The position numbers and the translations under genes were made by a program. A stretch of 64,000 nucleotides of DNA from Mycoplasmataceae bacterium (GTDB lineage Bacteria; Bacillota_I; Bacilli_A; Mycoplasmatales; Mycoplasmoidaceae), in the NCBI GenBank assembly GCA_031273215.1, contig JAISSF010000003.1, positions 1 through 64,000 of the forward strand, given 5' to 3'. Positions 15 through 33,591 of the stretch are shown here, in pieces. Within the stretch, counting starts at the first letter, position 1. Each line of letters starts with the position of its first letter. A model generated the notes under the pieces. It worked only from the letters and a program-made list of their open reading frames with translations. It was not told the origin of the DNA and did not search any database.

Positions 15-146
15 CATATAACTCAACTATATTTTCTAAATTATGTATATATAACAAGTTATATATACATTAAAAAATATTTTGATGAAAATAGCACCTT
101 TTTTTGCAACATTGCTTTAGAACAACCTTAACTATAATATAATTGT
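15..146 (+). promoter_or_regulatory. Shared surface-gene upstream module (copy 1)
   Basis: The region upstream of the GTG-started lipoprotein holds three elements in order. These are a box CATATAACTCAACTATATTT (from 15), a near-perfect dyad at 43-70 (arms ATGTATATATAAC / GTTATATATACAT) and the box TTTGCAACATTGCTT (103-117). A TATAAT follows at about 135-140. The stretch 38-117 is almost identical to 4857-4936, upstream of the next lipoprotein. The first box recurs upstream of the acidic-protein gene at 63963-63983, on the other strand. The repetition shows a conserved regulatory module; its regulator is not known. Confidence 0.6.
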
Positions 147-3400: not shown

Positions 3401-3457
3401 ATATTTATATTATAAATATAATTAGTACTTTAATATATATTATGGTAAATAGTAATA

Positions 3458-3530
3458 TAGCGAGTTTTGCTTTTGTGGAAGCAAAACACTAGAAAAATAG
3501 CAAGTTTTGCTTTTGTTGAAGCAAAATATA
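3458..3530 (+). repeat. Tandem palindromic repeat upstream of ATPase A
   Basis: Two copies about 40 bp apart (starting 3458 and 3498) each contain the inverted repeat GTTTTGCTT-N6-AAGCAAAAC. They end directly before the TATAAT (3532-3537) of the ATPase gene at 3544. Placement and symmetry suggest an operator for a dimeric regulator, possibly autoregulatory. Confidence 0.6.
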
Positions 3531-4779: not shown

Positions 4780-4856
4780 AAACATCCCATATCTAATGTG
4801 AAGAATATAATAATTGTTTTAGAAAAAGCATAATTCTTAGAAAAACTATATTTCCT

Positions 4857-4961
4857 AAATTATGTATATATAACTTGTTATATATACATTAAAAAATATT
4901 TTGATGAAAATAGCACCTTTTTTTGCGACATTGCTTTACATTTTATTATTTGCTTATAATT
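4857..4961 (+). promoter_or_regulatory. Shared surface-gene upstream module (copy 2)
   Basis: Nearly the same sequence as the upstream module at 38-117. It has a dyad at 4862-4889 with the same 13-base arms around TT, an A/T linker, and the box TTTGCGACATTGCTT (4922-4936). TATAAT follows at about 4956-4961, just before the lipoprotein ATG at 4968. Confidence 0.6.
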
Positions 4962-12151: not shown

Positions 12152-12228
12152 ATATTATTATTATAAATAATAATAGAAAATAGATACTTTTAAGGGGTTA
12201 TTTTAAGCTTCTTAAAAAGCATATGAAT

Positions 12229-12294
12229 GTTGTTTTTATTAAAATGAAAATGTTGTATTCATTAAAACGTTTATATTGTTTTTATTAAAATTGT
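12229..12294 (+). repeat. Degenerate tandem repeat upstream of ATPase B
   Basis: Three imperfect units of about 22 bp start near 12229, 12251 and 12272. The consensus is roughly TGTTGTTTTTATTAAAA. They end just before TATAAC (12297-12302), which is 6 nt before the ATPase ATG. This is the same architecture as the other ATPase genes but with a different sequence. Confidence 0.5.
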
Positions 12295-16318: not shown

Positions 16319-16380
16319 ATATTAAATTATTTAACATAACATATTAAATTATTTAACATAGCATATTAAAATAATATTTT
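16319..16380 (-). repeat. 22-bp tandem repeat upstream of ATPase C
   Basis: The unit ATATTAAATTATTTAACATA starts at 16319 and 16341, with a partial third unit at 16363, a period of exactly 22 bp. The array begins at the -10 region of the ATPase gene on the minus strand. The period equals two turns of B-DNA, which places any bound protein on one face. Confidence 0.6.
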
Positions 16381-27400: not shown

Positions 27401-29137
27401 ATGACAAAACGAACAAGTATTGATATAAAAACATTAATCCATATGTTAACCGTTGGTGTTAAGGCTATGGTTGATAAATATAAATATATCGATCAATTAA
27501 ATATTTTCCCAGTTCCTGATGGAGATACTGGTACTAACATGAAGATTACTTTAGAAGGTGCTATTAAAGCAACTGGTGGGTTAGAATTTGAAAACATGTT
27601 CTTATTTGGTAAAGCTTTCAATAGAGGTTTATTAATGAATGCTCGTGGTAACTCAGGTGTTATTACATCACAAATCTTTAAAGGTTTCTTTAAAAATGTT
27701 ACTGAAAACCAAACAGAAATGAACTTGAACGATTTAGTTGAAGCTTTTGTTTCCGCTAAAGATACTGCTTATAAAGCTGTAATGAACCCAGTAGAAGGTA
27801 CAATTCTTACAGTTATTAGAGTAGTTAGTGAAGTTGTTAAAGCTAAACAAAAAACATTCAAATCAGTTGATGAGATCTTCGATACGGTTGTAGAAACAGC
27901 GGAAAAGACATTGTTAACTACTCCTGAATTATTACCTGAACTTAAAGAAGCCAACGTAGTAGACTCAGGTGGATATGGTTTGTGTAGAGTATTTGAAGGT
28001 ATGAACAAAGCTTTGGATGAAGAGATTGGTAAACCGGATGCTGGAGTTAAAACAAAGAAAGTGTTAACACAAAAGATTGAAGAACCTAATAACTTACCGG
28101 CTGTAAAGAAAGAAGAATTTAAAGATAACAACGAAGGTTTCGGTTACTGTAATGAATTCATTGTAGAAATCGGTTCTCGTGTAACGACTAAACAAAAAAA
28201 GAAAGAAGCTTTTGATCTAAACTATTTTAAAAAACAATTAGAGAAAATGGGTGATTCAATCGTATGTGTGTTAGATGATAATATCCTTAAGGTACACATC
28301 CACTCTCCTGCTCCATGAGATATCTTCGCATTTGCAAGTAAATATGGTGAGTTCTTAAAAGTTAAAGTAGAGAACATGACACAACAATTCTTATCTAACA
28401 ACCCCGGTACTACTTTAGAATCATTAGCTGCTCAAGCCGCACAAGCTAAAAAATTCTCTACCGCTACTAGCCAAATTAAAGTTATTGTTACTGTACCTTC
28501 TAAAGAAACTGGAGATATCTTTGAAGAAAGAGTTGGCACTAACTATGAGATTAATACTGAAACTACAGGTAACCCATCAGTTGAGAAATTCTATAACATC
28601 TTTAAGAAAGTTAACTCTTCAAACATTATTCTAATCTTAGATGATTCTAACTACTTATTATCTGCTAAACAAGCTGCTGAATTATTACCTAAAAATATTA
28701 AATGTGAAATCTTTTCAGCTAGAAGTGTGTCTAATGCATTCTACTTATGTTCTTTAATTGACCACAACCAATCATATTCTAAGAATATTAAGGCGTTATG
28801 ATCAAAGATAAAACAAGCTAATGTATGTTTAATCTCTAAATCAGTTAAAGATGGCAGATTTAATAAAATTAAAGTGAGAAAAGGTGAATATATTGGTATG
28901 GCTAACAAACAAATCATTACTGCTGATGCTGGCTTATTAGAGAATGCTAAAAAGACAGTAACTACTCTATTAGGTGCTAAGACTAAATATAAAGAATGTA
29001 TTATCTTTACTGGTGATGAAGCTACTAGTAGTATCATTAAAGATGTAATTGACTTCATTAAAACCAAATATAAAATTTCAGCTGATGTATATAAGGGTGA
29101 TATTCCTAACTATCCATTCTGTATTGCTTTCTTGTAG
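27401..29137 (+). CDS. fakA: Fatty acid kinase subunit FakA (YloV), DAK-like
   Basis: A 578-aa DhaL-like kinase that uses ATP to phosphorylate fatty acids held by FakB proteins, feeding phospholipid synthesis from host fatty acids. The N-terminal DhaL domain shows FPVPDGDTGTNM (Mg-ATP binding Asp cluster), RGNSGVITSQIFKGF and VDSGGYGL. The middle and C-terminal domains (YCNEFIVEIGS, GDSIVCVLDDNILKVHIHSPAP, then the FakB-binding region) are full length. Two TGA Trp codons interrupt it under the standard code. No fakB is in the window. Confidence 0.85.
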
Positions 29138-29156: not shown

Positions 29157-30443
29157 TTATCTTAACACATTTAAAGGAATTACATTGATTCCATCTTCTT
29201 TTCTTTTGTAAGCAAAACCGTCGCATGTAATGATATTTAGCGACAGAGGTTTTCTAACTTTTGTAAAATCAATATTTTTCATCAAATTATTTAATGATGA
29301 AACTGCCTCATTAATCCATCTTTCGTCAAACCCCATTTTAATCTCGAATGCACATCAATTTCCATCTGATAAAACCATAATTACATCTACTTCTCTGCTC
29401 TTTGCAATTTTCTTTCCATTTTCCGTCGTAGAATACATATCACCATAGTAATATAAATCCGCACCTATCCTATCGGCATAAATTCTTAAGTTTTTAACAA
29501 CTTCATTTTCGAAAATAAAACCAGTGAAGTTCATATCACTCATCAGTTTTTCGGGAGTAGCTTTTAATAGAGCTAAAGCTAATGAAGGATCAACAAAATA
29601 TCTTTTAGCACTACTTCTTAATGATGCTGAACTTCTTAAATGTGTAGGTCAAGCTTCTAATTCTTCAATTATGTGTATTTTTTGCAAAGCTAAATAGTAT
29701 GTGTCGAAAGTATGTTTAGATATTTCTGAATCATGAATTTTTATATCATTTAAGAGTGTGGTTACTGTTGCGTATGTAGAAACGTTACGTGCTAAGCTCA
29801 TTAACAAACTTCTACCAATCTTTCAATTCTTGTTAGTTTCATCAACTCGTTGTAAGTCATCTGCGTAGATTGTTTTTACATATTCTTGTAATCTCATAAT
29901 TTTCTCTTTATAACTACCCGATTCTAAAAGAAATGGTCATCCTCCAAAAACTAATCTTTCTAATTTTTCTTTGAAAGGAATTTCGTTTAGTTTTGTAGTT
30001 TTAATGGTGTTTTTTAAAATATCATCTAAAGTTATTTCTCCAGTAGAGTATTCGAGCTCATATCACGACATAGGCCGCATGTGGTATCTAATAGTTCTTC
30101 CAGCTCCCGAATGCATATATGCGTCTTTAACTGGTGTCGCAGAACCAGTGAGAAAGAAACATCCCTCTTTGTTATCGACGGCATGTCTAATCTTGTTTCA
30201 AATCCACGGTTCAAGTTGCCACTCATCTATTAATCTTGGTTTTCCCCCTTCAGATAAAATATCTGGATTAAGTGATAAAAGTTTTTTCATTCCATCTGTT
30301 CTATCTATTGTGATGCCGCTTTTACATATTTGTTTTGCAGTTTCAGTTTTTCCACAGCCTTTAACACCAGAGATAGAGATCATAACGTTGCTACGAGACA
30401 CTTCTCTTAATTCTTCATCGATTATTCTTTTTTTATATCCCAT
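29157..30443 (-). CDS. AAA+ ATPase, DUF4143 family (copy E)
   Basis: A complete 428-aa protein of the B/E/F branch. Walker A is GVKGCGKTE (about 26-34) and Walker B PRLIDEWQLEP (about 69-79). Next come FFLTGSATPVKDAYMHSGAGR and a winged-helix-like stretch (ATVTTLLNDIKIHDSEISKHTFDTYY). The DUF4143 tail has SREVDVIMVLSDGNWCAFEIKMG, keeping the E-x-K. I chose the ATG at 30443, 6 nt after TATAAT; an ATG 6 nt upstream would also be in frame. A private tandem 23-bp repeat lies at the -35 position. It stands between fakA and the duplicated sufS fragment. Confidence 0.85.
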
Positions 30444-30464
30444 GCACATATTATATAATTTTTT

Positions 30465-30510
30465 CCATAATTTGGGGTTCCACATTTCCATAATTTGGGG
30501 TTCCACATTT
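30465..30510 (-). repeat. 23-bp tandem repeat at the promoter of ATPase E
   Basis: Two exact 23-bp units (30465-30487 and 30488-30510) share the core CCATAATTTGGGGTTCCAC. They lie just upstream of the TATAAT of the minus-strand ATPase gene, covering the place of a -35 box. I infer a repressor or autoregulator site. Confidence 0.65.
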
Positions 30511-30546: not shown

Positions 30547-31023
30547 TTATTTATATAACCCCCCCGCTAGTTCTTTACCCTTTTTGAACTGTTTAAGAGC
30601 GGATATTAAAACATCTATGTCTTTCTTATCGTTATATAAATACATACTAGCTCTTACATATCCGGTTTTATTATGTGTGAATTTTTCTTGCATCTTTACA
30701 CAGGCCATTCCTCCGCGAACTACTATCTTCTTACTACCTAAATAGTTACTTAAATCTTGTGGGTTTACTCCAGTGATATTAAATGAACATACGGGTAGAT
30801 CTGAACCGGCTGGTGCATATTCAATGTTTTTAACTTCTTTAATTCTTTTATCAAAATACTTTTTAAGTTCTAATTCATGTTGGTAGATGTTATTTAATCC
30901 AATTTTGCTTAAAAAGGCCAAGGCAGACCCGAATCCAAGTATCCCCTCATTATTAGGTGTCCCAGACTTAATAGATTTTTTATAATTATTCAGCGAACTA
31001 ATACTCTTTATAAAAATGCCCAA
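30547..31023 (-). pseudogene. Duplicated C-terminal fragment of sufS
   Basis: From GTPNNEGILGFGSALAFLSK to the end this open frame is nearly identical to the last 130 or so residues of intact sufS (32383). It includes the catalytic-Cys loop VRGGMACVKMQEKF. Upstream of a sharp breakpoint near 30970 (right after GGTGTCCCA) the similarity stops, and the frame runs into ATPase F sequence (MGIFIKSISSLNNYKK). The PLP-binding half is missing, so it cannot be an active cysteine desulfurase. Several substitutions show the duplication is not very recent. It overlaps ATPase F by 26 nt. Confidence 0.8.
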
Positions 31024-32254
31024 AGTTAATAATATTTATTCCATCGTTGGTAGTATATGATAAACCATTTGACACAAATATATTCAGCGAACATATTTTG
31101 TGGACATTTACAATTTTGCTTGTTTCAATTTTTCTTTTAAATGCTTTCAAACTTTCGATGCCATCTTTAATCAATTTTTCGCCGCCAAGTTTAACTTCAA
31201 TCGCAATTATATCACCATTTTTAAGTTCGATAATGTAATCAACCTCCAATTTTTCCTTATCTTGGTAGTAATATATTTTAGCACCAATAGACTGAGAATA
31301 TATTTTTAAATCACGACCAACCAACGATTCAAACAAGAATCCTGTATATTGTAAGTCATTCAATAATTTATCTTTAGATAATTGCAAAGAAGCAACGGCA
31401 ATAGAAGGATCTGTTCAATTTCACTTAGGCTTCATGTTAATTCGTATCGAAGATCGTATATGAGGTTTCCATGCATCTACATATTCAAGAACGTTAATAT
31501 CAGATAATAGTTTGGTATAACGTGATAGAGTTTTTGTGTTTATATACGCTTCTTCTGCTATTTTCTCAATAGAAGCATGTGTTAGTAAGTTTCTTGATAT
31601 CGCATTCATTATTTTTTCAGTTGTTTTTGAATTACTTTTACCAGATATTTTTTTAAAATCTGCGTTAACAATAGAATCAACATACTTCTCAACAGCCATT
31701 CCTGCCTTTAAATAGTCAAGGGCACATAATCTTGGCCATCCACCCTTAATAATATGCTCAATATGTTCATCTAACCCAAATTTCGATGCGCCGTAAACTT
31801 TTGTACCATCAATAAGGTGATCAAACTCAACTTCTTTTGAAGAAGTATTCTCTTCTGAATACGACATAGTATACATTTGTATACTAGCAATCCTACCAGC
31901 ACCGGTATGTTTTTTAGAATCAGGTGCGGGTGCCGCTGATCCAGTTAGTATGAATTGCCCGAACTCCGTAGATTTGTTAATCTCATCTCTTACTTTATTT
32001 CACATGTTTTCTACTACTTGTCATTCATCAATAACCATAGGTTTTTGTTGAGAAAAAAATAGCTCAGAATTTATATAGAATTTATTAACTTCATTTTCAT
32101 CTGCATCCATTTTGTGTATATTCCCACCAATCATTTCTGCAGTTCAAGATTTCCCACAATCTCTAGGGCCGGTGATTACAACGCCTCCCATATATGTTAG
32201 AATATCTTTGATATTAGTTTCTATAATTCTTCTGGTATATTTAGATTTATCCAT
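30998..32254 (-). CDS. AAA+ ATPase, DUF4143 family (copy F)
   Basis: A complete 418-aa protein. Walker A is GPRDCGKSW (about 29-37, with Trp from TGA), Walker B PMVIDEWQVVE (about 72-82). GQFILTGSAAP, HTGAGRIAS and a winged helix (ASIEKIAEEAYINTKTLSRYTKLL) follow. The tail LEVDYIIELKNGDIIAIEVKLG keeps the PD-ExK-like E-x-K. TATAAT is 6 nt before ATG. It lies between the two copies of the sufS 3' end and is preceded by three copies of its own 23-bp repeat, so it looks like a cassette inserted at the end of sufS. Confidence 0.85.
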
Positions 32255-32277
32255 GTAATTATTATATAGCTTTTTCT

Positions 32278-32346
32278 TCTAAAACGGAGAAATTGTCGAG
32301 TCTAAAACGGAGAAATTGTCGAGTCTAAAGCGGAGAAATTGTCAAA
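32278..32346 (-). repeat. 23-bp tandem repeat at the promoter of ATPase F
   Basis: Three units start at 32278, 32301 and 32324 (core TCTAAAACGGAGAAATTGTC). The first two are identical and the third has changes at its 3' edge. They lie upstream of the TATAAT of ATPase F. The period is the same as for ATPase E, but the sequence is unrelated. Confidence 0.7.
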
Positions 32347-32382
32347 CTTGGGTGTAGTAGTGTGGTTTTTTGTTAAAATATA

Positions 32383-33591
32383 TTAAATAATCCCAACTAA
32401 TTCTTTACCTTTTTTATATTGTTTAAGAGCATTGATTAAAACATCAATATCTGCTTTATCGTTATATAAATACATACTAGCTCTTACATATCCGGTTTTA
32501 TTATGTGTGAATTTTTCTTGTAGTTTAACACAGGCCATACCACCACGTACAATAATCTTCTTATTACCTAAATAGTTACTTAAATCTTGTGGGTTTACTC
32601 CAGTGATATTAAATGAACACACGGGTAGATCTGAACCAGCTGATGCATATTCAATGTTTTTAACTTCCTTTATTCTTTTATCAAAATACTTTTTAAGTTC
32701 TAATTCATGTTGGTAGATGTTATTTAATCCAATTTTGCTTAAAAAGGCCAAGGCAGACCCGAATCCAAGTATCCCCTCAGTATTAGGTGTCCCACCCTCT
32801 AAACGGTCAGGAATGGGTGCTCAATTGATTTTAGCGGCGGTTACAGTAGACACAGTTCCTCCTCCAAATTTAATAGGATGCATATTGTTTAAGTGTTTTG
32901 CTTTACCACATAATACTCCTACACCACTAGGCCCACACATCTTATGAGCAGAACATACAAAGAAGTCAATATCTAGTTTTTTAAAGTCTAATTTTTGTGC
33001 TGGTACAAATTGGGTAGCATCTATTATCACAATAATATCCTTATTTACTTTTCTTGCTGCTTTAACAATTTTAGCAATGTCTATAGTTTGTCCCACTAAA
33101 TTCCCGGAACTAGCGAAGCTGATTACTTTTGTTTTCCCAGTTATAGCTTTAACAAATGCATTTGTTGTAGGGAAGTTGTTTTCATCTTTAGCAAAAACCA
33201 ACTTAACTCCCTTACTCTCACTTTGCATTCAAGGTAACAAGTTAGATGAGTGCTCTCCATAACTAACTACTACTTCATCCTCCTTCTTTAGGGTAGCTAT
33301 GATATTGGTAGTAATGATGTTCATGCTTTCTGTAGCGCCACTAGTGAATACAATCTCATTAGTTTCTGCATTAAAGAATTTAGCACAGCTAATTCTTACA
33401 TTAGCTAATTTCTTCTTTAATTCATTAGCTATTGGTGAATCTGTATTATGTGGATTAGTGTTATACTTTGTATAGTATTCGCTTACTGTATCAACAACAC
33501 ATTTAGGTTTAAGTGCTGTGGCACTTGAATCTAAATATACTCAACCTTTATTATTTATAAATCAAGGAAAATACTTTTTCAAACTTGTCAT
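32383..33591 (-). CDS. sufS: Cysteine desulfurase SufS
   Basis: The 402-aa PLP enzyme takes sulfur from cysteine for Fe-S cluster and tRNA thiolation pathways. It begins MTSLKKYFPWFINNKGWVYLD. The PLP-binding Lys is in FFVCSAHKMCGPSGVG. The active-site Cys is in VRGGMACVKLQEKF, with the class II (SufS) arrangement. TATAAT is 6 nt before ATG. sufB lies 3 kb away on the other strand, with two surface genes between them. Downstream (minus strand) a cassette of ATPase F and a second partial copy of its own 3' end follows. Confidence 0.9.

What the first reader, a model, noticed from the sequence alone, without database searches (positions are those of the whole stretch)
30547..33591. ATPase cassette flanked by two copies of the sufS 3' end
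Seen: the last ~420 bp of sufS are repeated with few changes on the far side of ATPase F; similarity stops sharply after GGTGTCCCA (about 30970 and 32796). The intact gene is on the promoter side, so function is kept. Inference: insertion of the ATPase cassette with a long target duplication, or a cassette that carries a replacement gene end, as elements that insert at gene or tRNA ends do.
Basis: partly seen in the sequence, partly recalled or inferred. Interest (0 to 1): 0.62.

Follow-up and report, generated by a model that had tools for sequence, protein, structure and literature searches.

The report
Gene-end copy left by ATPase-gene arrival
A candidate phage-defence gene (AAA ATPase, DUF4143) appears to have arrived behind the sulfur-metabolism gene sufS on DNA from a diverged strain, replacing the end of sufS and pushing the old end and an older ATPase gene aside; similar gene-end leftovers, often of ribosomal RNA genes, lie beside such ATPase genes in related genomes.

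Summary
In this mollicute (UGA=Trp), the last ~400 nt of sufS recur, in frame, 33 nt behind ATPase gene F and in front of a second, different ATPase gene G. The copies are not a uniformly drifting duplicate. Next to the junction they differ at 1 of 123 sites; beyond that at 33 of 280, 22 of them at third codon positions. F's and G's repeat arrays each start 37-40 nt behind a sufS stop codon. Best reading: displacement by one-sided homologous recombination. Incoming [sufS 3' end - array - F] from a diverged strain recombined within sufS, its far end was joined illegitimately, and the recipient's own sufS end plus G was left downstream, as proposed for T6SS immunity arrays and Rhs ends. The pattern recurs: decayed copies of a neighbouring gene, 16S, 23S or 5S rRNA lie beside DUF4143 ATPases in relatives. 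But R-M genes also sit beside such copies, and some ATPases lack the nuclease motif, so self-driven mobility is unproven. In passing: F/G-type ATPases are preceded by tandem arrays of exactly 23 nt, in four other phyla too.

The parts
32383..33591 (-). intact sufS (cysteine desulfurase), probably chimeric: 3' part (about 32383-32671) from the incoming strain
   Evidence: family; mosaic differences
30547..30965 (-). displaced partial copy of the sufS 3' end (about 138 codons plus stop, frame open)
30842..30964 (-). near-identical tract next to the junction (1 difference in 123 nt against 32672-32794): the part truly duplicated
30965..30997 (-). 33-nt tail between the stop codon of ATPase F and the sufS copy; inferred illegitimate junction at its end
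30998..32254 (-). ATPase F: AAA_14 + DUF4143, PADLOC PDC-S01 candidate, Walker A/B and D..ExK present
32278..32346 (-). 23-nt tandem array (3 copies, CTCGACAATTTCTCCGTTTTAGA) upstream of F, just 5' of a TATAAT box
30462..30510 (-). 23-nt tandem array (2.1 copies, TGTGGAACCCCAAATTATGGAAA) upstream of G
29157..30449 (-). ATPase G: second AAA_14 + DUF4143 gene, 32% identical to F in the alignment (first ATG after the array taken as start; the open frame begins at GTG 30506)

Best explanation
The locus is a displacement array. The ancestor had sufS followed, 37 nt behind its stop, by ATPase gene G. DNA from a diverged strain, in which ATPase gene F sits 40 nt behind sufS, entered. It recombined homologously inside sufS near 32671. 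Its other end, 33 nt behind the F stop, was joined without homology to the recipient's sufS some 400 nt before its stop. Result: a chimeric but complete sufS, then F, then the recipient's left-over sufS 3' end with G behind it (homology-facilitated illegitimate recombination). Shown: anatomy, mosaic divergence, codon-position bias, two ATPase units at the same distance from a sufS end, similar arrangements in other genomes. Inferred: order of events, a DNA donor, the illegitimate joint. F and G are probably alternative single-gene defence modules (AAA+, winged helix, PD-(D/E)XK-like) at a variable spot behind sufS; that function is inferred from family resemblance only.
For: Mosaic: 1/123 vs 33/280 differences, p 5.7e-5; longest identical run p 5e-4 by permutation; 22/33 differences at codon position 3, p 9e-5. 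The copy keeps an open frame and substitutions mostly tolerated in relatives. Spacing sufS stop to array is 40 and 37 nt for F and G. F and G are only 32% identical, so the two units are not a tandem duplication. Same anatomy (intact gene - array - ATPase - left-over gene part) in L148 with the closest relative of G (59% aa) and a different host gene. Flanking direct repeats at E<1e-15: 10/148 ATPases vs 1/203 control genes, p 0.001; gene-end copies only, 5/148 vs 0/203, p 0.013. Published precedent: V. cholerae T6SS immunity arrays, PMC5361080; HFIR, PMC3240628.
Against: No donor or empty-site genome was found: the nearest SufS relatives are about 60% identical and have other neighbours. Microhomology at the joint cannot be examined without the donor. 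Differences come in several patches (three gaps of at least 54 nt, p 5e-5), so later gene conversion could have made the near-identical tract. In most cases with a fragment downstream, the joint lies 17-60 nt behind the ATPase stop, tighter than random illegitimate joints would give. Competence or conjugation genes were not looked for.
Confidence: 0.58

Rival explanations
1. Element-driven arrival: the [23-nt array + ATPase] unit is a single-gene mobile module with a defined right end just behind its stop codon. It cuts conserved host genes (free-standing homing) or moves one-endedly, and carries the host gene end as a homology arm.
For: Related units in four genomes share only array plus ORF; homology ends within 0-14 nt of the stop codon and the flanks are unrelated. 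The joint to a host-gene piece lies 33 nt (F), 40-60 (L148), 17-24 (L206, L212, 16S) and 17-19 nt (L164, L170, 23S) behind the stop. F and G keep D..ExK. Free-standing homing genes next to conserved genes are known in T4 (PMC2988022).
Against: Only 62 of 148 units keep D..ExK; the units at the 23S joints lack it. Rearranged rRNA ends also lie beside type I R-M genes (L212, which also has an ATPase) and beside other genes without an ATPase nearby (L202, L204). The true 16S spacer of G006 holds a piece of what looks like engB between spacer repeats, with no ATPase. No recognition site was deduced and no mobility shown.
Confidence: 0.17
2. Single-crossover integration of a circle holding [sufS 3' part - F].
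For: Also gives one intact and one 5'-truncated sufS with F between. Circularisation followed by single crossing-over is one of the two fates of linear DNA in E. coli (PMC3240628).
Against: The tract between joint and crossover would be donor DNA in one copy and recipient DNA in the other, so about 14 differences are expected in 123 nt; 1 is seen.
Confidence: 0.1
3. Insertion of F with a ~400-nt target duplication, both copies drifting since.
For: Direct repeats flank F; the intact gene is kept.
Against: Divergence is not uniform (1/123 vs 33/280) and is third-position-biased although one copy is no longer a complete gene. No transposase or terminal inverted repeats.
Confidence: 0.08
4. Metagenome assembly chimera of two strains (one sufS-F, one sufS-G).
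For: The genome is a draft of 20 contigs; MAG titles of two same-genus relatives carry k119 contig names; strain mixtures are possible.
Against: The longest identical run is 108 nt, which 119-mers would span if the same assembler setting was used. The F-sufS' joint lies at a non-homologous point. Only one further sufS piece exists in the genome.
Confidence: 0.07

Closest known systems
Orphan immunity-gene arrays of Vibrio cholerae T6SS clusters (homology-facilitated displacement, PMC5361080) and displaced Rhs C-terminal ends
   Same: A conserved upstream stretch serves as homology anchor; a new module is added behind it and the older module is shifted downstream.
   Different: The anchor here is a housekeeping gene (sufS; rRNA genes in relatives), the cargo a stand-alone AAA/DUF4143 gene, and a piece of the anchor gene itself is left between the modules.
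PADLOC candidate defence system PDC-S01 (DUF4143/AAA_14 ATPases)
   Same: F and G match its models (E 3e-58 and 1.6e-43) and have both Pfam domains above cut-off.
   Different: The copy-rich mollicute set (up to 46 per genome) includes many members without a D..ExK motif; activity is unknown here.
Free-standing homing endonuclease genes (T4 seg/mob, PMC2988022)
   Same: Stand-alone gene in an intergenic spot next to a conserved gene, with a nuclease-like domain.
   Different: AAA+ plus PD-(D/E)XK-like fold instead of GIY-YIG/HNH; a left-over gene end, which clean homing does not leave; no cleavage site known.
Integrative elements that restore a gene 3' end (tRNA, tmRNA; from general knowledge)
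   Same: The gene end is restored on the promoter side, an old end is found on the far side.
   Different: No integrase; the break lies ~400 nt inside a protein gene; gene ends differ by ~12% outside a short tract.

Membership tests
DUF4143/AAA_14 ATPase (PDC-S01 candidate) | Pfam AAA_14 and DUF4143 above the curated cut-off | tested here: met
   F 54.6 and 113.7 bits, G 46.8 and 88.3 bits
DUF4143/AAA_14 ATPase (PDC-S01 candidate) | match to PADLOC PDC-S01 models | tested here: met
   E 3e-58 (F), 1.6e-43 (G); no curated cut-off given
DUF4143/AAA_14 ATPase (PDC-S01 candidate) | PD-(D/E)XK-like C-terminal fold with catalytic residues | tested here: inconclusive
   D339 and E353-x-K355 present; low-confidence model (pLDDT 61) aligns with Can2, Card1, McrC nuclease folds at Z 7-7.8, a level common without relationship
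DUF4143/AAA_14 ATPase (PDC-S01 candidate) | protects against phage | not testable with these tools
   needs a phage assay
Displacement by homology-facilitated illegitimate recombination | intact chimeric anchor gene with donor-type 3' end, recipient end left downstream | tested here: met
   mosaic differences fit it; which end is the donor's is inferred
Displacement by homology-facilitated illegitimate recombination | older module shifted behind the new one | tested here: met
   G with its own array follows the left-over sufS end
Displacement by homology-facilitated illegitimate recombination | short microhomology at the non-homologous joint | not testable with these tools
   donor sequence behind F unknown
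Transposon with target-site duplication | transposase or terminal inverted repeats | tested here: not met
   only ATPase F lies between the copies; no inverted repeats bound it
Transposon with target-site duplication | flanking duplicates alike throughout, differing only by uniform drift | tested here: not met
   1/123 vs 33/280 differences
Integrase element at a gene end | integrase gene in the element | tested here: not met
   none between the copies
Free-standing homing endonuclease | nuclease motif kept in the members that show the arrangement | tested here: not met
   kept in F, G, L148; absent from L164 and L170
Free-standing homing endonuclease | cuts the neighbouring conserved gene of alleles without the element | not testable with these tools
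   needs a cleavage assay

The most novel reading that the evidence does not exclude
DUF4143/AAA_14 ATPases of the F/G kind are single-gene mobile modules consisting of a cognate array of exactly 23-nt repeats plus the ORF. They install themselves behind conserved genes (sufS, 16S, 23S, 5S rRNA), carrying or copying the end of the host gene and displacing earlier modules. The 23-nt array is the site that the protein recognises.
Probability: 0.2. Interest if true: 0.78.

Novelty: new variant of a known kind. Interest (0 to 1): 0.5.

Why it matters
It shows how a candidate single-gene defence system can be stacked behind a housekeeping gene without harming it, and gives a searchable scar (left-over gene end behind the ATPase) that reveals past arrivals. 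Expansions of this gene family (up to 46 copies in a 1.3-Mb mollicute) are unexplained. The strict 23-nt arrays make the question of what these proteins bind directly testable.

Tried and rejected
Empty-site comparison at sufS in 35 same-genus genomes: sufS neighbours differ, no allelic pair. Genome-contig scan for sufS gave only two relatives at 55-56%. Plain tandem duplication of a sufS-ATPase unit rejected: F and G are too diverged. Generality as 'ATPase always carries a gene end' rejected: most of 148 units show none. L098, L155 and L185 look like tandem paralogous genes, L105 a shortened copy of the ATPase itself, L176 another gene's repeat; none is counted as a gene-end copy. L119 (89-nt shared C-terminal stretch) is counted but is the weakest. 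PDB sequence search found no relative. Literature held almost nothing on DUF4143.

Full report
What is there. The window is a 64-kb contig of a 549-kb draft genome that uses UGA for tryptophan; the two relatives found by name are Mycoplasmataceae MAGs (that these come from termite guts is my reading of the isolate names). On the minus strand the order is: intact sufS (33591-32383), a 23-nt array, ATPase gene F (32254-30998), a 33-nt tail, the 3' end of sufS again (about 30965-30547), another 23-nt array, ATPase gene G (about 30449-29157), then the 3' end of a convergent gene at 29137. F and G each carry AAA_14 and DUF4143 above the Pfam cut-offs. They match PADLOC's candidate defence family PDC-S01 and are 32% identical to each other.

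The duplication. The differences are not spread evenly: 1 in the 123 nt beside the joint, 33 in the next 280 (Fisher 5.7e-5); the longest identical run has p 5e-4. Of the 33, 22 lie at codon position 3 (p 9e-5). The partial copy keeps its frame to a stop, and its residues are mostly ones that relatives also use. So most of the two ends evolved as working sufS ends in two lineages, while a short tract is recent and shared.

Interpretation. Incoming DNA with [sufS 3' end - array - F] recombined inside sufS near 32671 and was joined at its far end, 33 nt behind F, to the recipient's sufS upstream of the crossover. That duplicates the short tract, replaces the end of the intact gene and leaves the recipient's end with G behind it. 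Both arrays start 37-40 nt behind a sufS stop, as expected if F and G were alternative occupants of one spot. The same type of event is proposed for T6SS immunity arrays in V. cholerae (PMC5361080). Circle integration predicts about 14 differences in the near-identical tract where 1 is seen; plain target duplication predicts even divergence.

Is the arrangement found elsewhere? Partial sufS is unique to this genome among 58 with sufS. Around 148 DUF4143 units in same-genus genomes, strong direct repeats flank 10, against 1 of 203 control genes (p 0.001). Without paralogous neighbours and other explained cases five remain (window, L148, L168, L179, L119; p 0.013). The clearest is L148: the closest relative of G, with the upstream gene intact and a decayed copy of its C-terminal part starting within about 60 nt behind the ATPase stop. 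In L168 an intact 5S rRNA gene lies on one side and a decayed 23S-end/5S copy on the other. In L179/L206 four 16S rRNA pieces of 99, 98, 95 and 81% identity to the true gene lie on the ATPase contig, one 17 nt behind the ATPase stop. Further 16S or 23S pieces abut ATPases in L212, L164 and L170. A search for 16S pieces in eight genomes, made without regard to ATPases, found partial copies in three; most lie within 0.5 kb of an ATPase, and two others (L202, L204) end within about 200 nt of a contig end.

Does the ATPase drive it? For: related units in four genomes share just array plus ORF, with homology ending at the stop codon, and most joints lie close behind the stop. Against: only 62 of 148 units keep the D..ExK motif, and those at the 23S joints lack it; rearranged rRNA ends also lie beside type I restriction genes (L212) or without an ATPase (L202, L204), and a gene fragment that looks like engB sits in the rRNA spacer of G006. 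Known recombination of accessory genes at variable spots is enough; self-mobility stays possible.

Function. The AlphaFold model of F is weak (mean pLDDT 61). Its N-terminal part aligns best with archaeal AAA+ ATPases SSO1545 and PABY2304 (Z 8.4-8.6) and its C-terminal part with PD-(D/E)XK-type nucleases such as Can2, Card1 and McrC (Z 7-7.8). With the PDC-S01 match this suggests a single-gene defence module; untested.

The 23-nt arrays. Upstream of 123 ATPases in the genus, 42 have a strong tandem repeat, against 6 of 250 control genes (p 5e-17), and the dominant period is 23. Among ten plasmid-borne relatives of F from Bacteroidota, Actinomycetota, Chlorobiota and Pseudomonadota, nine have 23 as best period (chance 1 in 46 each; several of the scores are only just above shuffled sequence, one below). 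In a broader Bacillota-plus-plasmid sample of 34 DUF4143 genes only 5 do, so it marks the F/G branch, not all DUF4143 genes. The sequence differs between genes, the period does not. The arrays of F and G lie just 5' of a TATAAT box close to the start codon, which suggests an operator; recognition by the protein itself is inference.

Limits. No donor, recipient or sister strain is at hand, the genomes are drafts, the number of independent gene-end cases is small, and several lie at contig ends.

Noticed in passing
window 32278-32346, 30462-30510, 12226-12291, 16319-16370, 3450-3526: Each of the five DUF4143 ATPases in the window has a tandem repeat directly upstream (23, 23, 23, 22, 40 nt). F-like genes on plasmids of four other phyla also have best period 23 (9 of 10), with a different sequence in each lineage.
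   Followed up: partly
G006, G023, G020, G027, G017 (L206, L212, L213, L207, L175, L164, L170, L168, L202, L204): Partial, variously decayed copies of 16S, 23S and 5S rRNA genes are scattered beside DUF4143 ATPases and restriction genes in one group of relatives.
   Followed up: partly
L203 6434-7000 (G006:C28): The spacer behind the true 16S rRNA gene holds a fragment that reads like the GTPase gene engB (by eye), flanked by direct repeats of spacer sequence.
   Followed up: no
L050 777-819 and 2278-2320: One ATPase unit sits between two copies of the 40-nt dyad that belongs to the next ATPase gene.
   Followed up: no
L105 2385-4714: An ATPase gene is followed by a shortened copy of itself keeping only both ends, like a non-autonomous derivative.
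   Followed up: no
L073 3189-3301, 9600-9713, 14682-14814 (G008): Short (80-130 nt) dispersed repeats, mostly 80-98% identical, near ATPase genes and at many other places in G008.
   Followed up: no
G008, G015, G004: 46, 37 and 29 DUF4143 genes in genomes of 0.9-1.3 Mb, an unusual expansion.
   Followed up: partly
window 25-119 and 4844-4938: A 95-nt repeat (96%) lies in front of two lipoprotein-like genes on either side of another ATPase gene; probably a shared leader or promoter.
   Followed up: no
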